This document shows, in pieces, positions 1-44,801 of a stretch of 64,000 bases of DNA. Below the pieces are notes generated by a model that had not been told where the DNA came from, did not search any database, and saw only the letters and a list, made by a program, of their open reading frames with translations. A program made the translations under genes and the position numbers. This DNA is from Caldicellulosiruptor naganoensis. Lineage in GTDB: Bacteria > Bacillota > Thermoanaerobacteria > Caldicellulosiruptorales > Caldicellulosiruptoraceae. The stretch spans positions 212,582-276,581 of the forward strand of contig NZ_CP113864.1 of the NCBI RefSeq assembly GCF_026914285.1. The letters run 5' to 3'. Every line of letters begins with the position of its first letter. The stretch's first letter is position 1.

Positions 1-13
1 AATGCTTACATCA

Positions 14-1109
14 GTTTCAATCCCCAAAGGGCAGGCTACAAACCGAAATAATATCATATCCAATTAACGGCAAAAAATAGTTTCAATCCCCAAAGGGCAG
101 GCTACAAACGCGTATCAGGGTGCAACTGGAGACCCTGCTTGGTTAGTTTCAATCCCCAAAGGGCAGGCTACAAACTATTAAGGATAGGGATATAACAAGG
201 TTTGAAGTGACTTGTTTCAATCCCCAAAGGGCAGGCTACAAACTCTGTGATGAAAGGCAGGTGAGACAATGCCTAATGAGTTTCAATCCCCAAAGGGCAG
301 GCTACAAACAAACGAAAACAAACTACTACCAACATTACAAGGTTGCTTGTTTCAATCCCCAAAGGGCAGGCTACAAACAAATATATAGGTCGTGTGTAGG
401 TTGTATTTGAAAGGAGGGTTTCAATCCCCAAAGGGCAGGCTACAAACAATTGACTGTTAAGAAGCTTATTGATATTAGTGTTGGTTTCAATCCCCAAAGG
501 GCAGGCTACAAACAACCGCGAAGCTTACAGGCGAAGCTGGAGCTCTACGTTTCAATCCCCAAAGGGCAGGCTACAAACACCTGTGCCTTATGATGTACCA
601 GAAAATTATCCTGCGTTTCAATCCCCAAAGGGCAGGCTACAAACTTGCGAAGTTATTCTTTAACACACTGTGTTTTTACTTGTTTCAATCCCCAAAGGGC
701 AGGCTACAAACAGAGGAGTAGTGAAAAGATTAAGAGAGGTAGATTTTGGGTTTCAATCCCCAAAGGGCAGGCTACAAACTCTCGCAGAGTAGGAAGTTGG
801 GGTATGATGTAATTCGTTTCAATCCCCAAAGGGCAGGCTACAAACTACATATGCAAATCTAACACGTGTTAATCCAAAAGCGTTTCAATCCCCAAAGGGC
901 AGGCTACAAACTATCACCTTCTGGGATTGCCATATACAATTTATTTTGTTTCAATCCCCAAAGGGCAGGCTACAAACCATGGACGTACACAGCTACAGGA
1001 GAGAGTATGCTGAGTTTCAATCCCCAAAGGGCAGGCTACAAACAAATAGAGTTTGTAGAATATTATTACTACCAGAGAAGTTTCAATCCCCAAAGGGCAG
1101 GCTACAAAC
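14..1109 (-). CRISPR. CRISPR array, 17 repeats, transcribed leftwards
   Basis: Seventeen copies of one 30-bp repeat start at 14, 80, 146, 214, 280, 349, 418, 484, 549, 615, 682, 750, 816, 882, 948, 1014 and 1080, separated by 16 spacers of 35-39 bp. The copies look identical as read. On the + strand the repeat begins GTTTCAATCCCC and ends GGCTACAAAC. Its reverse complement ends ATTGAAAC, the conserved 3' tail that forms the crRNA 5' tag in type I-B and III systems, so the array is read on the minus strand. A consensus promoter just right of the last repeat agrees, so the repeat at 1080 is the leader end with the newest spacers. The left end lies outside the window; bases 1-13 belong to a further spacer. 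No cas1, cas2 or cas6 is present here; the only cas-like genes are the broken ones at 12.4-16.8 kb. Confidence 0.98.
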
Positions 1110-1484
1110 TCGTTAAATAGCTTGATTTTATTATATCAAGATTATACACACATGTCAATGTTTTTATATCAAAACATCTGTGGATAAGTCATCTCAACAG
1201 AGGAAAATCAAACAACAGAAGCACATAAGCCTTTTCCGTCTATCCAGCTGCTGCCAGCAATTTGATCTAATCCATGCACTGCAAGCCTGAAACCGAATAC
1301 AAATCAAGCCTCAAAATTTTGCAACTGGAGGTCGACAGATATGACTTTTAGTCAAAATGAAACATAATGCGATATGTTGTGCATATATATTCTGCAGAAA
1401 ATGTTTTCTTGAGAATGTCCTTAGTTTGGAGTAATATATAATTTAGCAAATAAACTGCTGCAAAGAGAGGATAAAACATCAAAG
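1110..1484 (-). other. CRISPR leader region and recD2 upstream gap
   Basis: This 375-base stretch has no gene. Its left part is AT-rich, holds the array promoter and, from the array orientation, should be the leader where new spacers are added. The part nearer 1484 is the 5' flank of recD2, with a weak GAGAGG ribosome site at about 1465-1470. I see no other convincing element. Confidence 0.6.
1130..1158 (-). promoter_or_regulatory. CRISPR array promoter
   Basis: On the minus strand TTGACA (1158-1153) and TATAAT (1135-1130) are both perfect sigma-A hexamers with a 17-base spacer. The predicted transcription start is near 1123, about 14 bases before the first repeat at 1109. This sets the array orientation independently of the repeat sequence. 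Confidence 0.85.
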
Positions 1485-3710
1485 ATGCTTCAGGATATAA
1501 AAGGAATGGTAAGCGATATAATATACAAGAACTTAGAGAACAACTACACAGTGTTTGAGATACTCTGTGATGATGAGGTTTTCACAGCAGTGGGAGTTGT
1601 GCCAGACATTGCGATTGGTGAAAAGGTAAAGGTGTACGGAGAGTTTTATGTCCATCCTGTCTATGGTCAGCAGCTTAAAGTTGCATACCTTGAAAAGCTT
1701 TTGCCAGAGACAAAGGATGAGATTTACCTCTACCTTTCTTCAGGTGTCATCAAAGGCATTGGGCAGAAGACTGCAAAGAGGATTGTTGATACATTTGGCG
1801 ATGATACAATGAGAGTTTTGCAGGAAGAGCCAGAAAAGCTTCTTTCAATCCGCGGGATGACACCTGAGAAAGTTGAAAGGATAAAGAATATGTTTTCATT
1901 CCAGAAGTTTTTGAAAGACATCATGACAATATTCTCCCAGTACGGACTTTCACAGAACCATGCAATGAGGCTTTTTAAACTCTATGGTTTTTCAGCTTTG
2001 GGGCTACTTTATGACAACCCCTATTTTTTGCTTGACGTATTTCCAGAACTTGACTTTAAGAAGGTAGACAGGCTTGCACTTGATATGGAAGTTAAGATAG
2101 ATGATGCAAGAAGAATCTCTGCAAAGATTATAAATCTTTTGAACATAGGCAGCAATAATGAAGGACACACATGCCTTCCGAAAGAAAAACTCATTTTGCT
2201 TGTTTCAAAGGCATTGGAAATAGATGTTGAAAAAGTAGAAGAAACACTTGAGAGCCTTGTAAAAGCCAGAAGAGTTGTTATTGACACGATAGATGGTATT
2301 GAGATGGTTTTTCTGTTTGGATTTTACGAATGTGAAAGGTTTATTGCTGACAAGATTTTTTCTATGCTAAGACAACACGAGGACATTTCTAACATAGACG
2401 AAAAAGTTGCTGAATTTGAGAAGAAAAACAACATAGTATTTTCACAAAATCAGAAAAAAGCTATTAGGATGGCTTTAACTGAGGGTGTGAGCATAATTAC
2501 AGGAGGACCTGGCACAGGAAAGACTACAATTATAAAATGTATAATTGACATATTTGAACAGGAAGGCAAGAAGGTTTTTCTTTGCGCACCAACTGGAAGG
2601 GCAGCAAAGAGGATGCAAGCAGCCTGCCAGAAAGAGGCAAAGACTATTCACAGACTTTTGGAAATGACTGTAACAGACTCTCAAGTATTTTTTCAAAAAG
2701 GGCCCAATAATCCTTTGAAATGTGATGTCATTATAGTTGATGAGATGAGCATGGTAGACAGCTACATCATGTACTATCTTCTTTCTGCAACAAAAGATAC
2801 AACAAGACTTGTTTTAGTTGGCGATAAAGACCAGCTTCCTTCTGTTGGTGCAGGAAATATCTTAAAAGACCTGATAAGAAGCGATGTTGTTCCATATGTA
2901 AGGCTTACTGAAGTGTACAGGCAAAGTGAAGACAGCTTTATAGTTCTAAATGCACACAGGATAAACAATGGAGAGTTTCCGCACCTTCAGAAAAACAGCG
3001 ATTTTTATTTCATTCAAAAAAATTCTCAAGAGGAAATACTAAAGACCATTGTTGAGCTTGTAACAAGAAAACTCCCAAGCTACTTGTCAGCCGACCCGCT
3101 GACAGACATTCAGGTTTTGTGTCCTTCTAAAAAAGGAATTGTTGGAATGTATAATATAAACAGGGTACTTCAGCAGTATTTAAATCCCAAAGATGGGTCC
3201 AAAAAGGAGATTGTGTACAAAGAGAACACCTTCAGAGTTGGCGACAAGGTTATGCAGATTAAAAACAACTACTCGCTTGAGTTTACAATTATTGAAGGTG
3301 AGGAGAAAGGTAAGGTCTCAACAGGGATATTCAACGGCGATATTGGGGTTATTAAGGACATTGACAGGGCAGGCGGTGCAATGGAGATTGTATTTGACGA
3401 TGACAAGCTTGTATTTTACGACTTTTCGCTCTTGGATGACTTGGAACTTTCTTATGCAATGACAGTTCACAAATCCCAAGGGTCTGAGTTTAGGTGCATT
3501 GTAATGCCAGTTGTTGAGACCTACCCGATTTTAATGACAAGAAACCTTCTGTACACAGCAGTTACGCGCGCAAAAGAGCTTGTTGTGCTGGTGGGTAAAA
3601 AAAGTGCCTTGGAGTACATGATAGCAAACCAAAAAGAGGCTATGCGATATTCAGCACTTTACGACTTTTTAAAAAGGAAGCTAAAAGATACGCAATTGCA
3701 AGCTTTATGA
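1485..3710 (+). CDS. recD2: RecD2-type ATP-dependent DNA helicase (exonuclease V alpha-like)
   Basis: A 741-residue superfamily 1B 5'-3' DNA helicase of the RecBC-independent RecD2 type, acting in DNA repair and replication-fork maintenance. The long N-terminal region, with helix-hairpin-helix-like segments at about residues 85-200 (GIGQKTAKRI, IRGMTPEKVERI), is typical of RecD2. The motor follows: Walker A GGPGTGKTT near residue 340, Walker B VIIVDEMSMVD near 416, GDKDQLPSVGAG near 445, AMTVHKSQGSEF near 658 and YTAVTRAKEL near 690. The ATG at 1485 is preceded by GAGAGG. The 3' end overlaps the convergent bioY by 71 bp. Length and motifs are complete, so it appears intact. Confidence 0.95.
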   Translation: MLQDIKGMVSDIIYKNLENNYTVFEILCDDEVFTAVGVVPDIAIGEKVKVYGEFYVHPVYGQQLKVAYLEKLLPETKDEIYLYLSSGVIKGIGQKTAKRIVDTFGDDTMRVLQEEPEKLLSIRGMTPEKVERIKNMFSFQKFLKDIMTIFSQYGLSQNHAMRLFKLYGFSALGLLYDNPYFLLDVFPELDFKKVDRLALDMEVKIDDARRISAKIINLLNIGSNNEGHTCLPKEKLILLVSKALEIDVEKVEETLESLVKARRVVIDTIDGIEMVFLFGFYECERFIADKIFSMLRQHEDISNIDEKVAEFEKKNNIVFSQNQKKAIRMALTEGVSIITGGPGTGKTTIIKCIIDIFEQEGKKVFLCAPTGRAAKRMQAACQKEAKTIHRLLEMTVTDSQVFFQKGPNNPLKCDVIIVDEMSMVDSYIMYYLLSATKDTTRLVLVGDKDQLPSVGAGNILKDLIRSDVVPYVRLTEVYRQSEDSFIVLNAHRINNGEFPHLQKNSDFYFIQKNSQEEILKTIVELVTRKLPSYLSADPLTDIQVLCPSKKGIVGMYNINRVLQQYLNPKDGSKKEIVYKENTFRVGDKVMQIKNNYSLEFTIIEGEEKGKVSTGIFNGDIGVIKDIDRAGGAMEIVFDDDKLVFYDFSLLDDLELSYAMTVHKSQGSEFRCIVMPVVETYPILMTRNLLYTAVTRAKELVVLVGKKSALEYMIANQKEAMRYSALYDFLKRKLKDTQLQAL

Positions 3711-12251: not shown

Positions 12252-12286
12252 AGGGGCAGTTCACAGTGGTTGCTGCCCTTATTTTC
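12252..12286 (+). terminator. Terminator after the ferritin-like gene
   Basis: AGGGGCAG (12252-12259) pairs with CTGCCCTT (12273-12280), followed by ATTTTCTT. Bases 12287-12457 hold nothing I can identify. Confidence 0.7.
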
Positions 12287-12457: not shown

Positions 12458-13210
12458 TTAAAAAAGGTAAGAAAGAATATAACTTCCTGCCCATAAATCT
12501 TGGGCTTTACGCGCTGTTGCAATAAAACTCTGAACAGGTCCGATAGTGAAAAGTAAAAATGCTGGTATATCACCTTTTAATTCGCCACAGAAAAGTTTGT
12601 CAACATCTGTAATAGCAGTTGCAATTGCACTTGTCTGAACTAAATGGTTGTAAATTGAATGAGAAGGTATTCTACTATCTGCCGGATGTATGTTTACCCA
12701 TTTGAAAAACTCAGGGACATATTGCCAAAGAAGTAAGAAAGCTAATTTTGCTTTTTCATCATCACATTTCAAATAGGAACATACCTTTGCTAACAGTTGA
12801 AAAAAGTGTTCTAATGCAAGGTGATTTTTTTCAAAGTATTTGTGAATGACTTTTTTTCTGATTTTTCTTGAGTAGATATCATGAAAATGGATTTCTTCTG
12901 GTTTTCTAACTGTTGAGGTTTTTCGTTTAAGTACTTCGCCTAATATTTCGTTCAGTGGATAAGAAATTTTATCAGCAATTTTTGTCAGCTCTGAGAATTC
13001 TTCTATACATTCATTAGGAATAATATAGTTTAGAAATCTTTCTGCCACTATTTCATGGATTGCTTCGTGGTTTTTATTTTTTGGACACATAAAATTTTGT
13101 ATATTAAGTTTTGGCCTGGGGTCTGACTCACCCTTATCAAGACTCAGTACTCACTGTTTGTCAAGAGGGTCATGTAAGAAGGCTTTTAGTTTTAGCTTCC
13201 ATATGCTCAT
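12458..13210 (-). pseudogene. cmr2: cas10/cmr2 remnant (type III CRISPR), N-terminal part only
   Basis: Reading leftwards from ATG 13210 after AAGGTGAG, the product starts MSIWKLKLKAFLHDPLDKQ, the N-terminus of Cas10/Cmr2 with its HD residues (LHD). Codon 20 is an in-frame TGA (13153-13151). The same frame then continues open to 12458 and ends LLFTIGPVQSFIATARKA followed by QDLWAGSYILSYLF, the conserved Cmr2 segment that precedes the palm domain. The remaining two-thirds, including the GGDD cyclase palm that makes cyclic oligoadenylate, is absent, and no frame downstream resembles it. Inference: both a nonsense change and a large 3' deletion. It lies divergent from the csx1-like gene. It belongs to type III-B (Cmr) by similarity to Cmr2. 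Confidence 0.8.
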
Positions 13211-13279: not shown

Positions 13280-14557
13280 TATATCACATATGAACAAAAA
13301 ATCAATAATAAAAGTTAAATCGACTTTACCACAGGAGGTTTTTAGAGTGAGATTAATATATCAATTAGGACGTTTGGATGCTAATATGGAATCTCAAAAA
13401 TTTAAGATTGCAGGTGATGCTGATGAAAATTACATTGAATCTGAACTAAGTTCTCTTTTTTTAAAGAAATATTTCGAAAACAGAAAAGGAAATGAAATGG
13501 AAAGTGAAACAAAGGTGATACTACTTTATCCTGTAAGTTTACCTTTTAATACTACTTTGCTTAGAAGTACAAAACTTGATGAAAAACTCAAAGAAGAAAT
13601 TGTAAATATTTGGAGAAATGAGGATGAATACTTTAAAAATCCATATGAATTTTTTGGAAATAATTTCCCTTATGGTAAAGAAAAAGATGATTTCATAGTT
13701 ATTCACTCAATAGGTAAATATCCATACGGTAAAGGTGAAGAAGGTACAAAAGAAATAAGGTTTGATACTGTTTATGGAGACATTGTATTAGAAATTTTCC
13801 TTGACATGCTAAAAAGATATCTCAAGGAAAATAATTTAATATCAGAAGTTTATATTGATATTTCAAGCGGACACAATATTTATATTTCGGCTATGCTTGA
13901 AGCACTCAGGCATTTTGCTACATTTACAAATTTAAGACACTGGGTAGATAAAAGAAAAAGACCCAAATTATTTATAACAATTTGTGATCCTATTTTGCCT
14001 GGTAGTCAAAATATTCATCAAGTATACAGGGAAGAGCAGCGATTTGTTGTTTTCTTTGAGTCTCCTTTGAGGTTAAATGATTTGAAGAAAATTGAAAAAA
14101 TATTCTTTAACAATGATGAATTTAAGAAAGATGTAAAGGATGTTTTAGAAAGGTTTTTGTTGACTTTTAGCGCTATAAAAAACAATGTACCTCTTTATCT
14201 GTTTGATGCCTATAGTTTCATTGACAAATCAGACGAAGTTAGTAAGATGCTCAGCAACGTAGTTGAATACTTACATAATAAAATAACAGAAAGTTACAGA
14301 TATTCTCCTAAGTTGGATAAAAGTATTTGTATTAGAATAATAAATGCACTTGGGTTTTATTTGGGAATAATTGATGTAATGAATTATTCAAAAATTTCAC
14401 CGTATGAGCCTAAAAAGGGTATTTTAATAAAAGATGTAAAAGATAAAGTAATTGAAATGTACAACAAATTTGGTCTCACCAATAATATTGATATTTTGGA
14501 AGTTGAGCTGCACAAACTAAGGGGACTATATAAAAAGATTGATCCAAAATGGATTAG

Positions 14558-14632
14558 AGAAAGATGTAATAATTATTTGGAAAAAATAAAAAACGAAAAA
14601 GATTCAAAAGACAGAATGCAACGCAATTTTTT
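14558..14632. repeat. 75-bp target-site duplication, left copy
   Basis: It begins AGAAAGATGTAATAATTATT and ends CGCAATTTTTT, directly abutting the left IS end. It is identical over 75 bases to 16615-16689. Two further bases (AG) are shared by chance with the IS right end. Confidence 0.92.
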
Positions 14633-16614
14633 CTTGACTTTGTCAGTTTGAAGCTCAAAAAGCTTGGGAGGACTGGGATTGACAAAATATGGACCTCAAT
14701 TTTGTCACTACATCATTTGCTAATACCAATAAATTCTAAGCCTTCCTCATATGTCATGAAGTTTTTTGGACCCTTTATCTTCATTACATTCAGTATATCT
14801 CCAGCTTCTCCCTCAATTTTTTGCTTTATCAAATATTTCTTCCCTTTTATCTCTATTTCAAAAAAGTTCATTGAATATATTGCTTCCATTATCCTTTCAC
14901 TACTTATTCCTTTACCTTTTCTCCTCAAAATATATTCCAATGTCCTTTGCAGTAAAAATGCCAAAAAACATATCACAAAATGTCCTTTTATTCTGCTTTC
15001 TGTAAAGTGATATATCGGTCGCACTTCTAAACAGCTTTTCATTACTCTGAATGACTGTTCTATCTTCCATAAATCGTGATATGCTCCTAAAACCTCTTCT
15101 ACATCCATATCCTTTTTGCTCGTTTGAATTGCATAATAACCGTCAAATTTCTCATCTCGTTTTATCGCTTCCTCATCCAATACATATTCTTCTGATTTTG
15201 ATTTCTTCTTCAAATATTTCCTTGCACCTTTCTTTTCTAAGGCTGTTATGCTTCCTTTGTTCTCTAAAAGCTCTTTGGCTTTTCTTACCAATCTCTCTCT
15301 GTCTTCTTTGTCTTTCTTGGCTCTCTTGCTTGAATACGTTATTATCAAATTCTCTTCTATTTTGAACTCTTTACCCTCTTCATCCTTGACAATATTTGTT
15401 CTTTCCAATACCTTATATTTGAATTCATCACCATAAATTTCTTCAGCATTCAAACATCTTTTGCCATCAAGTCTTTTATATCCTTCTTCATTAAAAACTT
15501 CATCTAAAATTTCTTTACTTGCATTCTTTAATCTGCTTGCTACTATATAGTCGTACCCAGCTTCTTTTATCATCTTTAAATTTATTCTGCTGTTAAGCCC
15601 TTTGTCTGCTACTATTATTATCTTATCTATACTAAATTTTTCCTTCAGCTTCCTCAGTATCTTTACCATCGTCTTGCTATCTATCGTATTACCAGGAAAA
15701 AGTTCATACCCTATCGGTCTGCCTTCTTTGTCCACCAAAAGCCCTAATACAACTTGCACTTCATTTACCTTGTTGTCTTTGCTAAACCCAAAATTTTTAA
15801 GTTCATCCGCTCTACAACTCTCAAAGTATATTGTCGTCACATCATAAAACACTACATCAACTACCATCTTAAATAAGTCTTTATTTCTCTGATACAGGTA
15901 TGTCTCTAAATCTTCTTTTACACTGTCAAGAAAATCTAAACACCTGTACAATTGATTCAAATCTATATCCTCTTCAAATCCAAAATATTTGCTTCTCTGA
16001 TGATAAGTTCTTAGTTTGCTCATTGGCTCTATCAATCTCTGTATGGTCATTAAAAAACTTACTTTGTCTACATCAAATTTTATCTTTCTCTCTTTTGCTG
16101 CTTTCCCTTTTAAAAACTTATCAATTTCAAGCTCCTGCCATAACTTTCTGTATACAATGTATCCCCAGTTTTTTACAACTGCATCCGAAATATCTTCTTC
16201 AGATTCAATAGTAACAGCTTTTGCATTCTCAGTAGTTGTTTCAGCGACAATATCAGATAGTTTTTTTACAATGTTTTTAAAAGCGGGGTCATCTTTGAGA
16301 ATATCAAGTCTACCAAAGTTAAATAGTACTCTTTGCTTTACTTTACCATTTTCACGGTAATTTTCGACTAACCTAACATACTGATAACCGCCAGCATTAG
16401 TAATTTTGACAAACATATGGCAACTCCTTGAAGATAGTTTGTTATATTGTACCACAAAATATTTAAAAAGTCAAGCAAATTCAGTATATATTAAGCTAAA
16501 ATTTGTCCCTACATTTTTTAAAATTTTTTATTTTTCTCTTCTTGAAACCCGCATAAATTAAGACTTTGTTATTTTTTGTTAGCTCAAAAACACCTCTTAA
16601 CTGACAAAGTCAAG
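14633..16614 (-). mobile_element. IS1634-family insertion sequence, complete (1982 bp)
   Basis: It is bounded by perfect 16-bp inverted repeats, CTTGACTTTGTCAGTT at 14633-14648 and its complement at 16599-16614. It carries one transposase gene on the minus strand and is flanked by 75-bp direct repeats. Very long and variable target duplications are known for IS1634, which supports the family call. It is inserted in the csx1-like gene at the HEPN motif. A second, diverged copy starts at 62436. Confidence 0.93.
14713..16416 (-). CDS. IS1634-family transposase (DDE, IS4 superfamily)
   Basis: A 567-residue DDE transposase read from ATG 16416, which has AAGGAGT 7 bases upstream; a longer frame to 16455 lacks such a site. 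DDE landmarks: FYDVTTIYFES near residue 180 with the first Asp, IIVADKGLNS near 250 with the second, and AYHDLWKIEQSFRVMKS near 440 with the catalytic Glu in the YREK-like helix. TTGACT and TACAAT with a 17-base spacer upstream form its promoter. It is intact, so this copy could still be mobile. About 90 percent of residues are shared with the copy at 62634 by eye. Confidence 0.92.
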   Translation of the reverse strand: MFVKITNAGGYQYVRLVENYRENGKVKQRVLFNFGRLDILKDDPAFKNIVKKLSDIVAETTTENAKAVTIESEEDISDAVVKNWGYIVYRKLWQELEIDKFLKGKAAKERKIKFDVDKVSFLMTIQRLIEPMSKLRTYHQRSKYFGFEEDIDLNQLYRCLDFLDSVKEDLETYLYQRNKDLFKMVVDVVFYDVTTIYFESCRADELKNFGFSKDNKVNEVQVVLGLLVDKEGRPIGYELFPGNTIDSKTMVKILRKLKEKFSIDKIIIVADKGLNSRINLKMIKEAGYDYIVASRLKNASKEILDEVFNEEGYKRLDGKRCLNAEEIYGDEFKYKVLERTNIVKDEEGKEFKIEENLIITYSSKRAKKDKEDRERLVRKAKELLENKGSITALEKKGARKYLKKKSKSEEYVLDEEAIKRDEKFDGYYAIQTSKKDMDVEEVLGAYHDLWKIEQSFRVMKSCLEVRPIYHFTESRIKGHFVICFLAFLLQRTLEYILRRKGKGISSERIMEAIYSMNFFEIEIKGKKYLIKQKIEGEAGDILNVMKIKGPKNFMTYEEGLEFIGISK

Positions 16615-16689
16615 AGAAAGATGTAATAATTATTTGGAAAAAATAAAAAACGAAAAAGATTCAAAAGACAGAATGCAACGCAATTTTTT
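16615..16689. repeat. 75-bp target-site duplication, right copy
   Basis: Identical to 14558-14632. It is followed by T and then GCTCAC, restoring the original csx1 codons for R-N-F-F-A-H. Confidence 0.92.
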
Positions 16690-16822
16690 TGCTCACTGTG
16701 GACTTGAAGAGCATTTTGTTTTTGTAGCGGAAGAAAAGGAAGGCACTTTTGTAAGGTATATTGAGGAATTGCCTGAATTAAGAGATACAATAAAAGAGAT
16801 GCTTCTTCAACGAATATAAAAA

Positions 16823-30285: not shown

Positions 30286-31023
30286 TTAAATTAGCAAATT
30301 TACCCCATACCAGACAGCAGGCACAAATATTGCAGGGAGAAGATTGCCAACTTTAATTTTAGATATTCCAAGCATGTTAAGACCTATTGCAAATATCAAA
30401 ACAGAACCTACCATTGACATCTGAAGTACAACAGTGTCTGTCAAAAGAGGTTTCAAAAGCCCGGCAAGAAGTGTGATTGACCCCTGGTATAAAAGCACAA
30501 CAATACTTGAAAACATAACGCCTATTCCAAGTGTTGCAGAAAATATCACAGAAGTAACACCATCTAAGATTGATTTTGCAAAGAGAATAGAAAAGTTGCG
30601 ATTAAGCCCGTCCTCAAGGCTTCCTACAATTGCCATGGCTCCGACGCAAAACACAAGGCTTGCTGTGACAAACCCTTCTGTAAATGTAGAATTTTCAAAT
30701 TTTATCACCTTCGATACTGCCTTTTTTATTCTCTCACCAAGTCTGTCCAAAAAATCTTCGATTTTCAATATTTCACCTACAAGCCCGCCAATTACAAGCG
30801 AGAATATCATAAGCATTATGTACTGCCTGTCGATTCTGCCGCTATTTAACACTTTGAATATTCCCTGAAGCACTCCCGATATTCCGATGAAGATGACAGA
30901 TAACGATATTGCCTGCATAATTGTAGATTTGAACCTTTCTGGGATACCAAACTTTAACACAAGTCCCAAAATTGACCCTGCAATCACAGCAGCAGCGTTT
31001 ACAATGGTCCCAAGCCCTATCAT
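30286..31023 (-). CDS. DUF554-family membrane protein
   Basis: A 245-residue protein with about seven hydrophobic helices. It begins MIGLGTIVNAAAVIAGSILG, the typical DUF554 start, and contains SLVIGGLVGEILKIED and a FCVGAMAIVGSLEDGL segment. It starts at ATG 31023 after AAGGAGAGG; the longer frame to 31125 has no such site. The molecular function of this family is not established; transport is a guess. Confidence 0.85.
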   Translation of the reverse strand: MIGLGTIVNAAAVIAGSILGLVLKFGIPERFKSTIMQAISLSVIFIGISGVLQGIFKVLNSGRIDRQYIMLMIFSLVIGGLVGEILKIEDFLDRLGERIKKAVSKVIKFENSTFTEGFVTASLVFCVGAMAIVGSLEDGLNRNFSILFAKSILDGVTSVIFSATLGIGVMFSSIVVLLYQGSITLLAGLLKPLLTDTVVLQMSMVGSVLIFAIGLNMLGISKIKVGNLLPAIFVPAVWYGVNLLI

Positions 31024-31261
31024 TGATGTCCTCTCCTTCTTGATAAAATTTTTTGACTGGCAGATAGTTATATTAGTATAATAGTTATGAAGGTATAAAT
31101 TATAACTTCTTAAGTTTCTCCACATCTTAGGTCATAATAGCCCAATAATTATGTTTTAATAAGTTGATACAATCTTTTGCAATTTATTTGGACCTGCATT
31201 TTTGATTATTATATTACTTTCCAGCATTTTTTTCAAACAAAAGTTTAAGGAGTGATTAAAA

Positions 31262-31759
31262 GTGCAGATAACTCAAGAAATTATAAACCAGATTGCAGAT
31301 AATATGCTTTCCATATTTCCAATGCTCACAAAAAATGTGCTCAAAAAGGACGAGTTTACTGAAAAGTATGGACTTCCACCGCGTTTTATCCACATTCTAC
31401 ACATTTTAGACCATTTTGGGCCAATGTCAATAAGCGAGATGTCAAAAAGACTTTCTATTCTTGCTCCGAACATGACGCCGCTTATCGACAAGTTGATTTC
31501 AGAGGGTTATGTCAAAAGAAGTCAGGCTGCATCAGACAGAAGAGTATCTATTATTGAGATAACTCAAAAGGGTAAAGAACTTACCCATCTTCACACCCAG
31601 TGGGTCAATCACAACCTAAAGAAGCATTTACAGAACCTGTCTGATGATGAGATTGAAGAGCTGTGGTATGTGCTAAAGAGACTTAAAAAACTTGTCATGA
31701 AGATGATTGGTTGTAGCCATCATAAGGAGGATGAAGAAAAAGATGTTAAAGCTTTTTAG
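31262..31759 (+). CDS. MarR-family transcriptional regulator
   Basis: A 165-residue winged-helix regulator. The recognition region is MSISEMSKRLSILAPNMTPLIDKLISEGYV, followed by the wing RSQAASDRRVSIIEITQKG near residues 78-102. It starts with GTG at 31262, with AAGGAG 9 bases before. It overlaps the first exporter gene by 17 bp, so it most likely regulates its own operon with the ABC exporter in response to an exported compound. Confidence 0.92.
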   Translation: MQITQEIINQIADNMLSIFPMLTKNVLKKDEFTEKYGLPPRFIHILHILDHFGPMSISEMSKRLSILAPNMTPLIDKLISEGYVKRSQAASDRRVSIIEITQKGKELTHLHTQWVNHNLKKHLQNLSDDEIEELWYVLKRLKKLVMKMIGCSHHKEDEEKDVKAF

Positions 31760-33479
31760 GTATCTAAAACCGTATACATGGGCGGTGGTATTAGCTCCGC
31801 TTTTCATGCTTTTAGAGGTTGTGATGGACCTCATGCAGCCAAGGTTTTTGGAGAGAATAATAGATGTTGGACTCAAAAATGGGGATATGGCGTATATTTT
31901 CAGAACCGGGCTTTTGATGATTTTGGCAGCAGTTGTAGGAATGATAGGCGGTGGCGGCTGTGTTGTTTTTTCAAGCATTGCAAGCCAAAACTTTGCATTT
32001 GATTTGAGAAATGATCTGTTCAAGAAAGTTATGGCTTTTTCGTTCAAAAACATTGACAGGTTCAAGCCAGAAACTTTAATCACAAGGCTTACAAACGATG
32101 TCATGCAGATGCAAAATATTGTCATGATGTCTTTGAGAATTGTTGTAAGAGCTCCACTTCTTTTCATAGGTGGGCTTGTGATGGCTGTTATGATAAATCC
32201 AAAGCTTTCCATCATTTTATTTATTGCAATTCCCTTTGTAATTTTAATATTTTACTTTATGGTCAAAAAGAGTTTTCCACTGTTTTCAACTCTTCAAAAG
32301 AAAATAGATAGGGTCAATGCAGTTATGCGTGAGAATTTACTGGGAGCTCGACTTGTAAAAGCATTTGTCAGGCATGAACATGAAAAGTCAAGGTTTTTAA
32401 AGGCAAATCAAGACCTTTTGGATGTATCACTCCAAGCCTTTGGGCTGATTGTGATTGCAATGCCACTTTTTATGCTTGTAATGAACATGAGTATGGTAGG
32501 GGTTGTATGGTTTGGGGCAGTTCAGATAAAAGCAGCCAATATGCAGGTTGGTGAGCTTATGGCATTTATAAACTACACATTGCAAATTCTATTTTCGTTG
32601 ATGATGATAGGCAATATCTTTTTGTTCATTACAAGGGCAAGCGCCTCTGCTGAGAGAATAAATGAGGTTTTAAATTGTGAGATTGACATCAAAAACAAAG
32701 ATGGGGCGATTACAACTCCAATAAAAGAAGGAAAGGTGGAATTTAGAAATGTCACATTTTATTACAATGAAGAAGAAAAAAGCCCTGCTCTTTGCGGAAT
32801 CTCTTTTGTTGCAAAGCCCGGTGAAGTTGTTGGGATAATCGGCACAACAGGTTCAGGAAAATCAACTTTAGTAAGTCTTATCCCGAGACTTTACGATGCT
32901 ACAGAAGGCGAGGTTTTGATTGACGGAATAAATGTTAAAGACTATGATGTGACCGTTTTAAGAAAGAGTATCAGCATGGTATTGCAGGACACTGTACTTT
33001 TCACAGGGACTATAAAAGATAACATTGCATGGGGAAATGAAGATGCATCAATGGAAGAGATAATAGAGGCAGCAAAAGTTGCCCAGGCTCATGACTTTAT
33101 AATGAGTTTTGAAAAAGGCTATGACACAGAGGTATCTGAGCGAGGTGTGAATCTTTCCGGTGGGCAAAAACAGAGAATCTCTATTGCAAGAGCTATCTTA
33201 AAAAAGCCAAAGATACTCATTTTAGACGACTGCACATCAGCTGTTGACATGGCGACAGAAAAAAGAATCCAAGCAGCCTTGAAAGAATATATCAAAGGTA
33301 CCACTACATTTATAATTGCCCAGAGAATCTCTTCTATAAAACATGCAGACAAAATTTTGGTAATGGATGGAGGAAGGATTGTAGCACAGGGTACACATGA
33401 AGAACTTTTGAAAAGCTGCCCGATTTATCAGGAGATTTATCAGACTCAGATGGGAGAGGGGGAAGGACAAATTGCCTGA
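31743..33479 (+). CDS. ABC exporter subunit A (heterodimeric multidrug type)
   Basis: A 578-residue half-transporter with six membrane helices and one ATPase domain. Walker A GTTGSGKST lies near residue 366, the signature LSGGQKQR near 472 and Walker B ILILDDCTS near 494. The residue after the Walker B Asp is Asp, not the catalytic Glu, marking the degenerate-site subunit of a heterodimer (LmrC/TM287-like). I prefer ATG 31743 (MLKLFRYLKPY); an ATG at 31731 directly abuts AAGGAGG, and the open frame extends to a TTG at 31707. It overlaps the marR gene and the next subunit. Confidence 0.9.
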   Translation: MLKLFRYLKPYTWAVVLAPLFMLLEVVMDLMQPRFLERIIDVGLKNGDMAYIFRTGLLMILAAVVGMIGGGGCVVFSSIASQNFAFDLRNDLFKKVMAFSFKNIDRFKPETLITRLTNDVMQMQNIVMMSLRIVVRAPLLFIGGLVMAVMINPKLSIILFIAIPFVILIFYFMVKKSFPLFSTLQKKIDRVNAVMRENLLGARLVKAFVRHEHEKSRFLKANQDLLDVSLQAFGLIVIAMPLFMLVMNMSMVGVVWFGAVQIKAANMQVGELMAFINYTLQILFSLMMIGNIFLFITRASASAERINEVLNCEIDIKNKDGAITTPIKEGKVEFRNVTFYYNEEEKSPALCGISFVAKPGEVVGIIGTTGSGKSTLVSLIPRLYDATEGEVLIDGINVKDYDVTVLRKSISMVLQDTVLFTGTIKDNIAWGNEDASMEEIIEAAKVAQAHDFIMSFEKGYDTEVSERGVNLSGGQKQRISIARAILKKPKILILDDCTSAVDMATEKRIQAALKEYIKGTTTFIIAQRISSIKHADKILVMDGGRIVAQGTHEELLKSCPIYQEIYQTQMGEGEGQIA

Positions 33480-35316
33480 AGGAAGAAAAAAAGATGTGCA
33501 AACACCGCAACCTGCCTTTGGACCTGGTCCTGGGCCAGGAAGAGGGCCAAAGCACAGATTTTTTCATCCTAGAGCAAAGCCAAAAGATTTAAAAAATACA
33601 CTCAGAAGGCTATGGAGGTATTTTGGCAGGTATAAAATTGCACTTTTGGGTGTGTTCTTGCTGATAACAATTAGCTCATTTATCTCAATAATTTCACCGC
33701 TTTTGATACAAAAAGCCATAGATAAGTATATAGTACCCAGAAAATTTACAGGGCTTGTAAATATCATCTTTGCAATGATTGTTTTGTATATTTTAAACTC
33801 AATCTTTGCATATTTTCAAGGCTATAGTATGATGAAAATTTCCCAGAAAGTTGTTTTCAATATGCGAAATGATATGTTTTCAAAGCTTCAAAAACTTCCT
33901 ATAAAAATCTTTGATACCCGTGCTCATGGTGATTTGATGAGCAGGCTTACAAACGATATAGACGTTGTTAACAACACCATCAATGCAAGTGTGACTTCTA
34001 TTTTCTCAAGCGTAATTACACTTGTGGGCTCTGTCATTGTCATGTTGACAATAAGCCCAATTTTGACAGTTTGTACTTTGCTCGTTGTGCCGCTTATGTT
34101 CATCTTGACAAACTGGATTGCTAAAAACACAAGAGAATACTTTTCACAAAACCAAAAACTGCTTGGCAAACTCAATGGGGTAATTGAAGAGGACATCACA
34201 GGTCAAAAAGTCATAAAGGTGTTCACAAGAGAGGAAAAGGAGATAAACAAGTTTATTGATATAAACAGGCAGCTGACTTCTGTTGGAATAAAAGCTCAGA
34301 TTCTATCTGGGGTAATTCCGCCGCTTATGAATATGCTCAACAACTTTGCTTTTATAATTGTTGCAGCAGTAGGTGGGTATTTAGCGCTAAAAGGATTGGT
34401 TTCAATTGGCAGCATCGCAAGTTTTATTCAGTATGCAAGACAGTTTGTACGTCCTTTAAACGAGCTTGCAAACCAGTTCAACCAGCTTCAATCTGCCTTT
34501 GCTGCAGCAGAAAGAGTCTTTGAGATAATGGACGAGGAAGAAGAAAGAGAAAATGAAAAAGATGCTATTGAGCTTACAAATATCAAGGGTGAGGTTGAAT
34601 TTAGGAACGTGTGGTTTTCTTACAAAGAAGGTGAACCTGTTTTAAAAGATGTAAGCTTTCACGCAAAGCCCGGACAGATGATAGCCTTGGTTGGTCCAAC
34701 TGGTGCTGGCAAAACTACAATTGTCAATTTGCTTACAAGGTTTTATGATATTGACGAAGGTGAAATTCTCATTGATGGAATTGATATAAGGAAGATAAAA
34801 AGAGAGTCTTTGAGAAAAAGCCTCGGGATTGTACTTCAGGACACATATCTTTTCTCTGAGCCTGTGATGGAAAATATCCGTTATGGAAAGCTCACAGCAA
34901 AAGATGATGAGGTTATAAAAGCAGCTAAAATTGCAAATGCTCATGAGTTTATAAGACACCTGCCACACGGCTACAAAACAGTGCTCACAGATGGCGGGGC
35001 AGACCTTAGCCAAGGACAAAGACAGCTTTTGGCAATCGCAAGAGCAATTTTGTCTGACCCGGCAATACTCATCTTAGATGAGGCAACAAGCAACATCGAT
35101 ACAAGAACAGAAAAGCTTGTTGGGGAGGCAATGCAAAAGCTCATGCAGGGAAGAACAAGTTTTGTGATAGCCCACAGACTTTCCACCATCAGAAATGCAG
35201 ACCTCATCCTTGTCATATACAACGGCAGAATTATTGAACAGGGGACTCATGAGGAGCTTATAGCAAAGAAAGGGTTTTATTATAACCTCTATATGAGCCA
35301 GTTCGCAGTAGTGTAA
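33472..35316 (+). CDS. ABC exporter subunit B (heterodimeric multidrug type)
   Basis: A 614-residue half-transporter. A Pro/Gly-rich cytoplasmic extension (about residues 10-30, GPGPGPGRGP) precedes six membrane helices and the ATPase domain with GPTGAGKTT near 407, LSQGQRQ near 512 and LILDEATS near 533. It has the canonical catalytic Glu that subunit A lacks. Start TTG 33472 overlaps the end of subunit A by 8 bp, implying translational coupling and a 1:1 complex. The substrate is unknown. Confidence 0.9.
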   Translation: MPEGRKKDVQTPQPAFGPGPGPGRGPKHRFFHPRAKPKDLKNTLRRLWRYFGRYKIALLGVFLLITISSFISIISPLLIQKAIDKYIVPRKFTGLVNIIFAMIVLYILNSIFAYFQGYSMMKISQKVVFNMRNDMFSKLQKLPIKIFDTRAHGDLMSRLTNDIDVVNNTINASVTSIFSSVITLVGSVIVMLTISPILTVCTLLVVPLMFILTNWIAKNTREYFSQNQKLLGKLNGVIEEDITGQKVIKVFTREEKEINKFIDINRQLTSVGIKAQILSGVIPPLMNMLNNFAFIIVAAVGGYLALKGLVSIGSIASFIQYARQFVRPLNELANQFNQLQSAFAAAERVFEIMDEEEERENEKDAIELTNIKGEVEFRNVWFSYKEGEPVLKDVSFHAKPGQMIALVGPTGAGKTTIVNLLTRFYDIDEGEILIDGIDIRKIKRESLRKSLGIVLQDTYLFSEPVMENIRYGKLTAKDDEVIKAAKIANAHEFIRHLPHGYKTVLTDGGADLSQGQRQLLAIARAILSDPAILILDEATSNIDTRTEKLVGEAMQKLMQGRTSFVIAHRLSTIRNADLILVIYNGRIIEQGTHEELIAKKGFYYNLYMSQFAVV

Positions 35317-35506
35317 GAAGTCAGGGCAGTAGAACAAAAAGAGTTGTATGACTTTTTTGGAAATAATCTTGCCGCCAGTTTGAAATATATTGGGGTATAA
35401 TTGAAAGCGGTTAAATGACAAAGATAAATAAATATTAGGGTTAAAGCCATAAAAAGTGAGGGTAAAAATATATTAAACCTCCGAGGGGACTGGAGGAATT
35501 TGATTT

Positions 35507-37168
35507 ATGCTTTCAAAGTTTTATTTTTCAAGATGTTTCAGAAAGAGTTTGCTTACTGCCCTGATATTTTTTGTTTTAAATCTTACTTATTTAGCTATGG
35601 TAATATACATAGCATTTTTTAAAGAGTCATTCTTTGAAAAATACAAACTTTTTGTGGGCATTTCTTCTGCAGTGGTGGTTACAGCAGACAGCTTTTACTT
35701 ATTTTACACACTATACACCCTTTTACAAGAAAAATACAAGCTCAAAATGTCTCTGCAAAAAACGATTGTTCAATGTGATACTATCAAAAGGAAACTTTTA
35801 GATATTACAAAAAATGAGCATAAGAGGTTTCAAAATGGCAAAAAAACAAAGATAGTTGAAATTGCATATTTTGACATGCTAACAGGGCTTCCAAACAAAC
35901 TTCAGCTTGAAATATTTTTTGAAAGGCTGAGTCAAAAGGTGCCTTCACATTTTGATGAAATAGCAGTAGCTGTAGTTGATATAGAAAATTTAGTGGGGTT
36001 TCAAAGTGAAGGTTTTTATTCTATCTTGAGTATTATTTTGAAAGATATTGGTTATAAACTTAAAAATGGGCTTCCAGAAAAAAGCTTTGTTACAAAAATA
36101 GAGGACAATAAATTTGCAATAATCTTTTATGATTATGGATGCAGAGATTTGTTAATAGAATACATAAAAATCATTGAGGAGACTATCGAAGGTAGATGGT
36201 ATTTGGTTGGTGATGAGTTTGAATTAAAGAGCGTTGTAGGAGTTGCTTTTTATCCTCAGGATGGAAGTTGTATAGACGAAGTTTTAAAAGCTGCTACAGA
36301 AGCGCTTGAACAGGCAAGGCTAAGGGAAGAAAAGAAAATATATTTTACAAGTAGTGAAGATAATACAAAGCTTTTCTACAACATTTCAATTTCTAATGAA
36401 CTTAAAAAGGCAATCTTGCAGAAAAACTTTTTGCTTGTATATCAGCCATTGGTGGATTTGCAGAAAAACAAAATTGCTGGAGCAGAGGTATTTGTTCGAT
36501 GGATAAGTCCTGAAAAAGGAATGGTTTCTGCAAAGGAGTTTATGTCAGTTGCTCAAAAAGAGAGAATGATTCCTGAGATTGAAGAGTGGGTTTTAGATAC
36601 CGTTGCTGAGGATGTGCCAGCTTTTGAGAAGATGTTGCCAGATGATTTCTTCATTTCTTTAAATGTATCGTTTTTAGATTCAAGTGTAGCTGAGTGTATT
36701 TTTTCAAACAAAGTATTTACTCACTATAGTAAATACAATAAGATAATGGCATTTGAAATAAATCAGCAAGATATAGATACAAATCTTTCTGACTGTTTAA
36801 AAGTTGCTGAAGAGGTTAAACATAAAGGGTTTAGGATAATTGTGGATGATTGGTGTAGTAGCAATATAGCTGTTGATACCATAAGATATTTTCCAGTGGA
36901 TGCAGTGAAAGTTGATAATAGATGCATTGAAAATGCAGTTTTTGACAAGAGTATTAGCGTAATAATAAAAGGAATTATTGAGATAGCCCATGCATTGAAA
37001 ATAAAAGTTATTGCTGAAGGTGTTGAAACACCATTTCATTACAGAGTGGCAAAAGAACTTGGATGTGACTTTGCTCAAGGGTTTTTATTTTCAAAACCAA
37101 TGGTTAGAAATGAGTTTTTAGAGTTTTATAGAAAATATGAGATGGGCCTGGCAAAGGTTATTGCATAA
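35507..37168 (+). CDS. Membrane-bound GGDEF-EAL protein, cyclase site degenerate
   Basis: A 553-residue protein: two membrane helices (about 16-38 and 47-70), a GGDEF domain starting AYFDMLTGLPNKL near 125, and a C-terminal EAL domain. The GGDEF site is replaced by KIEDNKFAI, so no cyclase activity is expected. The EAL domain begins AGAEVFVRW and keeps SLNVS, FEIN, IVDDW, VKVD, AEGVET and QGFLFSKP, so the main metal ligands seem present and c-di-GMP hydrolysis is possible. It starts at ATG 35507 after ACTGGAGG, followed by a terminator. Confidence 0.87.
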   Translation: MLSKFYFSRCFRKSLLTALIFFVLNLTYLAMVIYIAFFKESFFEKYKLFVGISSAVVVTADSFYLFYTLYTLLQEKYKLKMSLQKTIVQCDTIKRKLLDITKNEHKRFQNGKKTKIVEIAYFDMLTGLPNKLQLEIFFERLSQKVPSHFDEIAVAVVDIENLVGFQSEGFYSILSIILKDIGYKLKNGLPEKSFVTKIEDNKFAIIFYDYGCRDLLIEYIKIIEETIEGRWYLVGDEFELKSVVGVAFYPQDGSCIDEVLKAATEALEQARLREEKKIYFTSSEDNTKLFYNISISNELKKAILQKNFLLVYQPLVDLQKNKIAGAEVFVRWISPEKGMVSAKEFMSVAQKERMIPEIEEWVLDTVAEDVPAFEKMLPDDFFISLNVSFLDSSVAECIFSNKVFTHYSKYNKIMAFEINQQDIDTNLSDCLKVAEEVKHKGFRIIVDDWCSSNIAVDTIRYFPVDAVKVDNRCIENAVFDKSISVIIKGIIEIAHALKIKVIAEGVETPFHYRVAKELGCDFAQGFLFSKPMVRNEFLEFYRKYEMGLAKVIA

Positions 37169-37176
37169 AATGAAAG

Positions 37177-37222
37177 TAGCTGCCATTGAAGATATAGATA
37201 AAGGCAGCTATTTTATTTTTTA
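37177..37222 (+). terminator. Terminator after the GGDEF-EAL gene
   Basis: TAGCTGCC (37177-37184) pairs with GGCAGCTA (37203-37210), followed by TTTTATTTTTTA. Confidence 0.85.
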
Positions 37223-37365
37223 GCCATATTACAAATATTTCTTGCAACAAACAAAAACTTAAGGTATAATATTTACAGCAAATTTATGATTGCTTAGAGA
37301 TGGAATTGGTGCTTGGGTGTGTGAGCCTAATCATGTACCAAAAATTTCAAGGAGGGGTTTAAAAG

Positions 37366-38028
37366 GTGGAGTATTTGAAACCTTCAAATCTTTTAAATCT
37401 GATTGTCTCACCGGGAAAAGTATTTCAAAAGGTAAAAGAAAAACCGGATTTTCTAATTTTAATATTTTTGATACCAGTGATAGCAGCCCTCACGACCTTG
37501 TTTATGCCAAAAGTGACAGAAGAAGCTTTATTAGAATATGTGAAAAGAACAATTGAAGACCCTCAAGTACAAGAAGCTACTCTGAAAACTTTAAAACTTA
37601 CAAAATCACCTATCTTTTTGGCAGGAACGGCATTTGTAAATACCTTTATTTCATTTTTTATTGCTTCCTTTGTCTTGCTCGTAATTGTAAGGCTTGCAGG
37701 TGGTGAGATTGATTACAAAAAAGCACTTACAATTGTGGCAGTTGCAAATCTTGTAATGATTCCATATTACATCTTCTATGTGATATATGCCAGGGTCGTA
37801 AATTTGAACATTTTGGATATTCAAATGAATTTTAAGTATTTTATAAGAACATACCTGCATGTGTTTGCTATATGGCGATATGTACTAATTGGGATTGGGG
37901 TGTTTGCTGCCTGTGAACTTAACAAAGCAAAAAGTATTATTGTTAGTATTGTCTATAGTGCAGTCACACTCATAATGCCGATTGTTTCAATGTTTACACA
38001 AAACTTTATGAAGTTTGGTGGCAGATAA
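37366..38028 (+). CDS. Yip1-domain membrane protein
   Basis: A 220-residue protein with five hydrophobic helices, starting PSNLLNLIVSPGKVFQKVKEKPDF, the typical opening of bacterial Yip1 proteins in which SP..F is followed by K.KP. It starts with GTG at 37366 after AAGGAGGGG. It is followed within 20 bp by the adaptor and the MacB-like permease, so the three form an operon. Its role in the transporter is unknown. Confidence 0.8.
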   Translation: MEYLKPSNLLNLIVSPGKVFQKVKEKPDFLILIFLIPVIAALTTLFMPKVTEEALLEYVKRTIEDPQVQEATLKTLKLTKSPIFLAGTAFVNTFISFFIASFVLLVIVRLAGGEIDYKKALTIVAVANLVMIPYYIFYVIYARVVNLNILDIQMNFKYFIRTYLHVFAIWRYVLIGIGVFAACELNKAKSIIVSIVYSAVTLIMPIVSMFTQNFMKFGGR

Positions 38029-38047
38029 AAAAGGAGAGTATTCTAAC

Positions 38048-39694
38048 ATGCAAAGCACTGCAAAAGGTCTAAAAAACTGGCAAAAAGCTGTAATTATTGT
38101 GTTACTTATATTAGTGGGATTTATTTTAACACTTGTTTTAACAATGCCATCTGGGAGCAAAAAGGATGCTTCATCTAAGCCCAAGACTGCAAAGGTACAG
38201 AGGATTTCTTTAAAGCAAACACTTTTGGTATCTGGCATTGTGCAAAGCAGCAGCACAAGGAATGTTTTATCAAAAGTAAATGGTACTTTAGAAAAGATTT
38301 TTGTCAAAAACGGGCAATATGTCAAAAAAGGAGATTTAATTGCCAAGATAGATGACAGTCAAGCAGTTTATAAGATAGACTCTTTAGAAAGACAGCGTCT
38401 TGAGCTTGAACTTCAGAGAGAAAATTTGCAAAGACAACTTCAGAACTATATTTTAAAATCTCCTCAAGAAGGATTTATCCAAAACCTTGCGGCAGAAGAA
38501 GGTCAACTTGTCAGCCAAGGAATGCAGATAATGACTATTGTTGATGATTCAAAGATGAAGCTAAGCACCCAGCTTCCTGCCTGGTGCTATGGGAAGGTAA
38601 AAAAGGGGCAGAAGGCAGAGGTTGTAGTATCTGACCTTATGGATAGAGTCGACGGTGTTGTGGAAAGTATTGGTAGCAGGATATACAAAAATGATGATGG
38701 TGTGATGGTATTTGATGCAAAGGTAGTAGTTTCAAACAAAAACGGTAGTTTGACTGAAAGTATGAGGGCAAGTATAAGTTTAAAACTTTTAACCGGCGAA
38801 AAAGTGACATCGCTCAGCGAAGGTGTTTTAGAGGTATTTTCAAAAAAGAGTATTGTAAGTCCTGTTTCTGGCAAAATAGAAAAGGTTTTTGTGGAAAACG
38901 GGCAGAAGGTAAAAATGGATAGTTTGCTTTTGAAATTTTCGACAGATGATATTGAAATGCAAATAAAACAGCTTGATTTGAAGATAGAAGAAATAAAGTC
39001 CCAGATAGAAGCATCCAAAGAGGATTTGAAAAACTTTGAAATTTTATCACCAATTGACGGTAAAATAGCTGATTTGAATCTTCAGGATGGTGATGTGGTA
39101 AGTGCTGGGCAGTTAATATGTTCAGTATATGACCCAAAACACCTTGCAATAAATGCTCAGGTGGAAGAACTTGACATTTTGAAGATAAAGCCAGGGCAGA
39201 AGGTTAACATAAAGCTTGATGCAGTAGGAAGTACAAGAAATAGGCCTTTAGAAGGGTATGTTGCAGAGATTTCTGAAAAGGCTCAATCAGATAGTAGCAG
39301 CGTCTCAAAGTTTGTTGTTAAAATAGAGTTTGAAAATAACAACAGTATAAAAATTGGGATGCACGCAGAAGCAGAGATTATCTTAAAGTCCAAGGAAAAT
39401 GCGCTGGTTGTACCAGTTGAAGCAGTTCACAAAGAAGATGGAAAATATTATGTGTATGTTTACACACAACAAAAGGCTAAAACTTCTGAGAAAAACAAAG
39501 AACAAAAAACCAGCCAGAAAACAGACGAATACGGACTTGACAGCTCTTACTATAAAGATGCAGAAAAAAGGCCGGTCAAACTTGGCATGACAACCGAAAA
39601 ATATGTTGAAATCTTGGAAGGACTTATCGAGGGCGAAGAAGTGGTGCTTCCAAAGTTTGATACTGAAAAACAGGGTCAAAGTCTTTTCTACTAA
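38048..39694 (+). CDS. Membrane-fusion (HlyD/MacA-type) efflux adaptor
   Basis: A 548-residue protein with one N-terminal membrane helix (about residues 13-35). It carries two lipoyl-like half-motifs (VNGTLEKIFVKNGQYVKKGD near 81; VSGKIEKVFVENGQKVKMDS near 281) each with its partner, a coiled-coil segment, and C-terminal beta-barrel regions (KPGQKVNIKLDAV; VVPVEAVHKEDGKYYVYV). The duplicated lipoyl region makes it longer than the usual 350-400 residues. Start ATG 38048 follows AAGGAGAG. It is the adaptor for the permease 20 bp downstream. Confidence 0.85.
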   Translation: MQSTAKGLKNWQKAVIIVLLILVGFILTLVLTMPSGSKKDASSKPKTAKVQRISLKQTLLVSGIVQSSSTRNVLSKVNGTLEKIFVKNGQYVKKGDLIAKIDDSQAVYKIDSLERQRLELELQRENLQRQLQNYILKSPQEGFIQNLAAEEGQLVSQGMQIMTIVDDSKMKLSTQLPAWCYGKVKKGQKAEVVVSDLMDRVDGVVESIGSRIYKNDDGVMVFDAKVVVSNKNGSLTESMRASISLKLLTGEKVTSLSEGVLEVFSKKSIVSPVSGKIEKVFVENGQKVKMDSLLLKFSTDDIEMQIKQLDLKIEEIKSQIEASKEDLKNFEILSPIDGKIADLNLQDGDVVSAGQLICSVYDPKHLAINAQVEELDILKIKPGQKVNIKLDAVGSTRNRPLEGYVAEISEKAQSDSSSVSKFVVKIEFENNNSIKIGMHAEAEIILKSKENALVVPVEAVHKEDGKYYVYVYTQQKAKTSEKNKEQKTSQKTDEYGLDSSYYKDAEKRPVKLGMTTEKYVEILEGLIEGEEVVLPKFDTEKQGQSLFY

Positions 39695-39714
39695 AAAGGG
39701 GAAGATGTTGTGCG

Positions 39715-44452: not shown

Positions 44453-44801
44453 TTACTCCCAGTACAACAGGCTCAAAAACATATTTTCAAGCTTTGCCTG
44501 CTCTTCAAGAATACTTAGAGGTGTTATTCCAAACGGGATGGGCACAATTTCTCTTGACTCCAAAGTCCACAAAAAATGTTTTGAATTTTGGGTATTTGTC
44601 GATGTTTTGCTGCATAAACCACAGAAGGTCGCACAGGTTTTTGTAAAGCTCTGAGTTTCTTTCTCTTTCCTGCTGGAATCTATTCAAATCTACTATGAGC
44701 TCAAACACCTTTGCAATCTTGTATCTGAATTCATCTTGTGCTGTACTATTTTCAAAACTTTTACAAAAGTTCTGATAGCTTTCGCAAAATATCCTATACA
44801 T
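44453..44801 (-). pseudogene. Small helical hypothetical protein, frameshifted
   Basis: Starting at ATG 44801 (AAGGTGAGG upstream) the frame reads a charged helical protein (FRYKIAKVFELIVDLNRFQQER). Near 44562 a one-base insertion changes the frame. The continuation REIVPIPFGITPLSILEEQAKLENMFLSL ends at a stop at 44455-44453, giving about 115 residues in total. The family is not recognised and the function unknown. The original frame instead stops early at 44505. Confidence 0.55.

What the first reader, a model, noticed from the sequence alone, without database searches (positions are those of the whole stretch)
1..1160. CRISPR array with uniform repeats and a consensus promoter survives while the linked type III genes are dead
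Seventeen repeats look identical as read and a perfect TTGACA-17-TATAAT promoter drives them. Repeats degenerate quickly without use, so an active adaptation and processing machinery is probably encoded elsewhere (type I-B or another type III locus sharing this repeat).
Basis: partly seen in the sequence, partly recalled or inferred. Interest (0 to 1): 0.5.

Follow-up and report, generated by a model that had tools for sequence, protein, structure and literature searches.

The report
Ordinary type I-B CRISPR array
This is a normal bacterial immune-memory array, one of seven in its genome built from the same or nearly the same repeat and apparently served by an intact type I-B system encoded elsewhere; the broken type III genes nearby are not its machinery, so its survival is expected.

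Summary
In detail: 17 identical 30-nt repeats (window 14-1109) and an exact TTGACA-N17-TATAAT promoter on the minus strand. The nearby type III-B genes are dead: a 230-aa cas10 stub, and csx1 split by an IS. The paradox dissolves in the whole genome. Seven arrays (151 repeats) share a repeat family, a leader and the promoter (7 of 7). One adjoins an intact type I-B operon (cas4-cas1-cas2-cas8b-cas7-cas5-cas3) 174 kb away; a stand-alone cas6 lies elsewhere, conserved in 12 of 12 genus genomes. No intact type III effector was found. In four relatives with intact III-B, no such array lies within the 20 kb fetched, so III-B was probably never its partner. One spacer matches (35/36) a capsid-like gene of a relative's prophage, which spacers of a sister array and of a second I-B system also match. 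Uniform repeats reflect copying at acquisition, not proof of current use. The guess that I-B machinery sits elsewhere is right; the surprise is not. Expression and present-day adaptation are untested.

The parts
14..1109 (-). CRISPR array: 17 identical 30-nt repeats and 16 complete spacers (s01 at the right, leader end); bases 1-13 are part of spacer s17; the array continues to genome 212458
1110..1362 (-). Leader, shared with the other six arrays of this repeat and with arrays in relatives
   Evidence: alignment of 7 leaders; leader matches in genus genomes
1153..1158 (-). -35 element TTGACA
   Evidence: same place in 7 of 7 leaders
1130..1135 (-). -10 element TATAAT, 17 nt from the -35 and 20 nt from the first repeat
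110..145 (-). Spacer s15: 35/36 match to a capsid-like gene in a prophage of a genus relative; overlaps by 21 nt a spacer of the second I-B system
846..881 (-). Spacer s04: same protospacer (35/36) as a spacer of the sister array at genome 28113-28608
1485..3710 (+). Right-hand neighbour, RecD2-like helicase (name by recall); not part of the CRISPR system
12458..13150 (-). N-terminal stub of cas10/cmr2 (homology ends at 12464 against four intact relatives)
13290..14651 (+). csx1 5' part, reading into the IS; ends RNFFLT, so the His of the HEPN RxxxxH motif (motif recalled) is lost
14633..16612 (.). IS of 1,980 bp in csx1 (DDE transposase 14713-16455, minus), flanked by 77-bp direct repeats 14556-14632 and 16613-16689
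16613..16819 (+). csx1 3' part (RNFFAH motif onward)

Best explanation
[quoted passage not shown] Its leader carries a sigma-70-type promoter that transcribes the array leftward (minus strand). The stand-alone Cas6 is the likely enzyme that cuts the transcript inside each repeat to leave an ATTGAAAC handle, and the Cas8b-Cas7-Cas5-Cas3 complex encoded 174 kb away would use the crRNAs against phage DNA. Cas1-Cas2-Cas4 of the same operon would recognise the common leader-repeat and insert new spacers in any of the seven arrays. The III-B module in this window, which in relatives has no array nearby and could only have borrowed crRNAs in trans, was partly deleted and IS-broken in this lineage without consequence for the array. 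Shown by sequence: shared repeat, leader and promoter, intact genes, a phage-matching spacer, broken III-B. Inferred: transcription, Cas6 processing, present-day acquisition and interference.
For: 151 repeats in 7 arrays plus one solitary repeat; 7 of 7 leaders alike with the exact promoter at the same place; intact cas4, cas1, cas8b, cas7, cas5, cas3 and cas2 beside an array whose 17 leader-side repeats are identical to the window's; two intact cas6, one of them stand-alone and conserved in 12 of 12 genus genomes; window spacer s04 recurs in a sister array (35/36); s15 hits a prophage capsid-like gene (35/36), and spacers of another sister array and of the second I-B system hit the same prophage; intact Cas10 in 4 of 11 other genus genomes, with no array of this repeat in the fetched 20 kb. 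PMC12814883 (abstract and section on acquisition rates read) reports that arrays with the same repeat are about equally likely to be updated whatever their distance from the cas locus.
Against: No expression data. Only 1 of the 16 complete window spacers has a protospacer outside arrays in what was searched. The 5' flanks of three system-1 protospacers (TCC, TAA, TCA) do not give one clear PAM, and one of the three is a weak match. That the stand-alone Cas6 cuts this repeat rests on its conservation, not on a test; the I-B operon itself has no cas6. Distal repeats are decayed (2 and 6 mismatches), so part of the array is old.
Confidence: 0.9

Rival explanations
1. A silent relic: the array no longer gains spacers or is no longer used, and looks intact only because it is young or recently moved here.
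For: This location next to the RecD2-like gene is unique to this genome among 12; distal repeats are decayed; no expression data exist.
Against: Leader and promoter are as intact as in the six sister arrays; all 17 leader-side repeats are identical; all required genes are intact in the genome.
Confidence: 0.08
2. The array belonged to the III-B module and outlived it.
For: Lies about 11 kb from a cas10 stub and a broken csx1.
Against: In 4 of 4 relatives with intact Cas10 there is no array of this repeat in the 20 kb fetched; in the one whose genes were named (L064: cas10-cmr3-cmr1-cmr4-cmr5-cmr6, csx1) the seven genes scanned include no cas1, cas2 or cas6; the leader is the one used by the array beside the I-B genes.
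Confidence: 0.02

Closest known systems
Type I-B (Cas8b/Csh1, Cas7/Csh2) CRISPR-Cas systems with several arrays
   Same: Repeat, leader, cas gene set, remote arrays sharing one repeat
   Different: cas6 is not in the operon but stand-alone elsewhere; seven arrays
Type III-B (Cmr) module of genus relatives
   Same: The stub and broken csx1 correspond to the intact loci in 4 relatives
   Different: Here only a 230-aa cas10 stub and a split csx1 remain

Membership tests
Type I-B CRISPR array | Regular direct repeats with unique spacers of uniform length | tested here: met
Type I-B CRISPR array | Same repeat and leader as an array adjoining a I-B cas operon | tested here: met
Type I-B CRISPR array | Intact Cas8b, Cas7, Cas5, Cas3 in the genome | tested here: met
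   (PADLOC Cas8b, Cas7b, Cas5b, Cas3b; open frames matching nearly whole profiles)
Type I-B CRISPR array | Adaptation genes cas1, cas2, cas4 | tested here: met
   cas1 and cas4 by profile; the 87-aa cas2 at L023 449-712 is named from its position and by eye, not by a profile
Type I-B CRISPR array | Cas6 present | tested here: met
   which of the two processes this repeat was not tested
Type I-B CRISPR array | Spacers match mobile elements | tested here: met
   1 of 16 complete window spacers (s15) to a prophage; none in the phage collection
Type I-B CRISPR array | A consistent PAM | tested here: inconclusive
   three flanks only, TCC, TAA, TCA
Type I-B CRISPR array | crRNAs are made and used | not testable with these tools
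   needs RNA data
Type III-B system (active) in this genome | Intact Cas10/Cmr2 | tested here: not met
   only a stub; the PF22335 hit at 20361 is read as a GGDEF/EAL protein from its sequence
Type III-B system (active) in this genome | RAMP proteins (Cmr1, Cmr4, Cmr6 and others) | tested here: not met
   PF03787: none in this genome; it does hit a relative's Cmr4 and Cmr6; Cmr4: none in G000

The most novel reading that the evidence does not exclude
A spacer of the second I-B system (L021 6881-6915) is 20 of 20 nt identical to the GGGAAGG variant of this window's repeat, as found in relatives and on plasmid pCALKR01, followed by 15 nt of other sequence. It may record an invader that carried a mini-array or a solitary repeat mimicking this repeat, possibly an RNA anti-CRISPR (Racr) aimed at the first system, so that one CRISPR system guards against an inhibitor of its sibling.
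Probability: 0.1. Interest if true: 0.55.

Novelty: new member of a known kind. Interest (0 to 1): 0.13.

Why it matters
It removes an apparent paradox: an array beside dead genes need not be orphaned, because repeat and leader identity, not proximity, tie it to its machinery. The genus-wide stand-alone cas6 and the shared leader make this a clean case for testing array use in trans. The finding itself is ordinary.

Tried and rejected
Rejected: array as a remnant of III-B (relatives' III-B loci show no array in 20 kb); a hidden second type III locus (PF22335 hit at genome 20361 reads as a substrate-binding/PAS/GGDEF/EAL protein; no RAMPs); self-targeting (window 1-1200 against the whole own genome gave only repeat-bearing places at E<=0.001: 17 matches); spacers against IS elements of this window (for the window array's spacers the blastn-short output shows no place in the window outside the array).

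Led nowhere: exact cores of s15 and s04 in IMG/VR, 0 hits, s15 with the prophage variant, 0; window 1-1200 in phages, no match, in plasmids one Caldicellulosiruptor plasmid by its repeats; repeat patterns in named genomes, 0 stretches (the tool says near relatives may be left out), so the organism is named only to genus, from the plasmid's name and general likeness. PF10040 found no Cas6 whereas PF01881 found two. No IS family was assigned to the element in csx1; IS1634-type long duplications are recalled, and a paper search (listing only) was not followed up. Source of the repeat-like spacer not found (the one phage hit is weak, E 0.2, and covers mainly the flanking repeat). Of the Racr paper (PMC10651486) only the abstract and outline were seen.

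Full report
Observation. The window is genome bases 212582-276581 of a single 2,494,610-base contig. Seventeen identical 30-nt repeats lie at window 14-1109, each scored as Rfam CRISPR-DR2. The array goes on past the window edge with two decayed repeats, 19 in all. The repeat in crRNA sense is GTTTGTAGCCTGCCCTTTGGGGATTGAAAC, so the array is read on the minus strand from a leader at its right. The promoter TTGACA-N17-TATAAT is exact. The repeat itself has only a weak hairpin (-4.2 kcal/mol, no better than shuffles).

The rest of the genome. The same repeat, with up to 3 mismatches, occurs 150 times against 0 for the reversed control. At a looser threshold the copies fall in seven arrays: 49, 8, 26, 24, 21, 19 (the window's) and 4 repeats, plus one solitary repeat at 44594. 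All seven arrays have the same leader of about 250 nt, and in 7 of 7 the exact promoter sits 19-20 nt before the first repeat. So the promoter is a property of the system, not of this array.

Machinery. Next to the array at 38953-40649 lies an intact operon on the minus strand: cas4, cas1, cas2, cas8b, cas7, cas5, cas3 (30701-38744; cas2, 87 aa, is named from position and by eye). It lacks cas6. Two cas6 genes exist: one in a second I-B system of the Cst type (about 2356.6-2364.7 kb) that has its own array of 77 copies of an unrelated repeat in the stretch fetched, and one standing alone at 2156 kb beside an ABC transporter gene. The stand-alone cas6 has a 76-78% identical counterpart in 11 of 11 other genus genomes, 12 of 12 with its own, followed by the same downstream sequence in all 11. 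I infer that it processes the system-1 arrays.

Type III. In the window only the N-terminal 230 aa of Cas10/Cmr2 remains, homology ending at 12464 against all four intact relatives. csx1 is split by a 1,980-bp IS flanked by 77-bp direct repeats; the upstream part ends RNFFLT where relatives read RNFFAH, so the presumed HEPN motif (recalled) is cut. No RAMP protein was found in this genome, although the same family does hit Cmr4 and Cmr6 of a relative; Cmr4 itself gives no match here. The only PF22335 hit reads as a GGDEF/EAL protein. Very divergent type III proteins could escape these searches. Intact Cas10 occurs in 4 of 11 other genus genomes, and a close Cmr4 in the same four (which also lists a weak 56-aa match in G006). 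In one of them the operon is cas10-cmr3-cmr1-cmr4-cmr5-cmr6 with csx1 beside it, and none of the four 20-kb stretches holds a repeat of this family. Thus III-B here has no array of its own nearby.

Why the array is where it is. It lies upstream of a RecD2-like gene. In 11 of 11 other genus genomes that gene has no such leader upstream, and the stretches fetched from three of them (G003, G008, G011) hold no repeat, although flanking genes are syntenic. The array has therefore probably moved or been copied here in this lineage; the mechanism is unknown.

Use. Repeat uniformity is not a measure of use: in sister arrays a base change appears at one point and is then carried by the repeats on the leader side, as expected if each acquisition copies the first repeat. 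Better evidence that the array has worked within the shared system is that spacer s04 recurs with one mismatch in the sister array at 28113 and that s15 matches, 35/36, a capsid-like gene of a prophage in another genus genome. A 20-kb stretch of that prophage also carries matches to a spacer of the array at 50634 (33/35) and to four spacers of the second I-B system (38/38, 36/36, 34/36, 31/35), with a partial match for a spacer of the array at 12261 (24/26 over 26 of 35 nt). The four second-system protospacers all have a 5' CCN flank; the three of the first system have TCC, TAA and TCA. Against this: 15 of 16 complete window spacers have no protospacer in what was searched (the listing was cut at its end), and nothing here shows expression.

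Literature. PMC12814883 (abstract and section 'Relative spacer acquisition rates' read) reports that arrays sharing a consensus repeat are about equally likely to be updated regardless of distance from cas genes, which fits this genome. Searches for Caldicellulosiruptor with CRISPR and spacer, and with Cas6 and CRISPR array (listings), showed no title on this subject; one listed paper was searched for passages (PMC10536717) and holds one unrelated mention.

Verdict. A real, intact but ordinary remote array of a type I-B system; a neighbour of, but not dependent on, a dead III-B locus.

Noticed in passing
L021 6881-6915 (genome about 2366.9 kb): A spacer of the second I-B system starts with 20 nt identical to the GGGAAGG variant of the first system's repeat (found in relatives and on plasmid pCALKR01) and goes on with 15 nt of other sequence: a spacer against a CRISPR repeat on some invader, perhaps a mini-array or Racr-like solitary repeat. 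Its own genome's repeats differ by one base and lack the 15 nt.
   Followed up: partly
window 14556-16689: The IS in csx1 is flanked by 77-bp direct repeats, an unusually long target duplication, as recalled for the IS1634 family.
   Followed up: partly
L028 9986-10738 (genome 2155986-2156735): Stand-alone cas6 far from the cas operons and arrays examined, with a counterpart of 76-78% identity in 11 of 11 other genus genomes and the same downstream sequence.
   Followed up: partly
window 1485-3710 and genome 174215-176511: Two copies of the RecD2-like gene, 91% identical; each of the other 11 genus genomes lists one.
   Followed up: partly
genome 29137-30465 and 43165-44415 (L010 9137-10465, L011 3165-4415): Two intact Csx1-like CARF-HEPN genes in a genome with no intact Cas10 found to make their signal.
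   Followed up: no
genome 44594-44623: A solitary repeat (3 mismatches) just downstream of a csx1-like gene.
   Followed up: no
L086 (plasmid pCALKR01) about 12.2-12.3 kb: A two-repeat mini-array of this repeat family on a plasmid of Caldicellulosiruptor acetigenus.
   Followed up: partly
genome 12261-15499: In this array a run of six spacers, s23-s28, recurs exactly as s42-s47: an internal block duplication.
   Followed up: no
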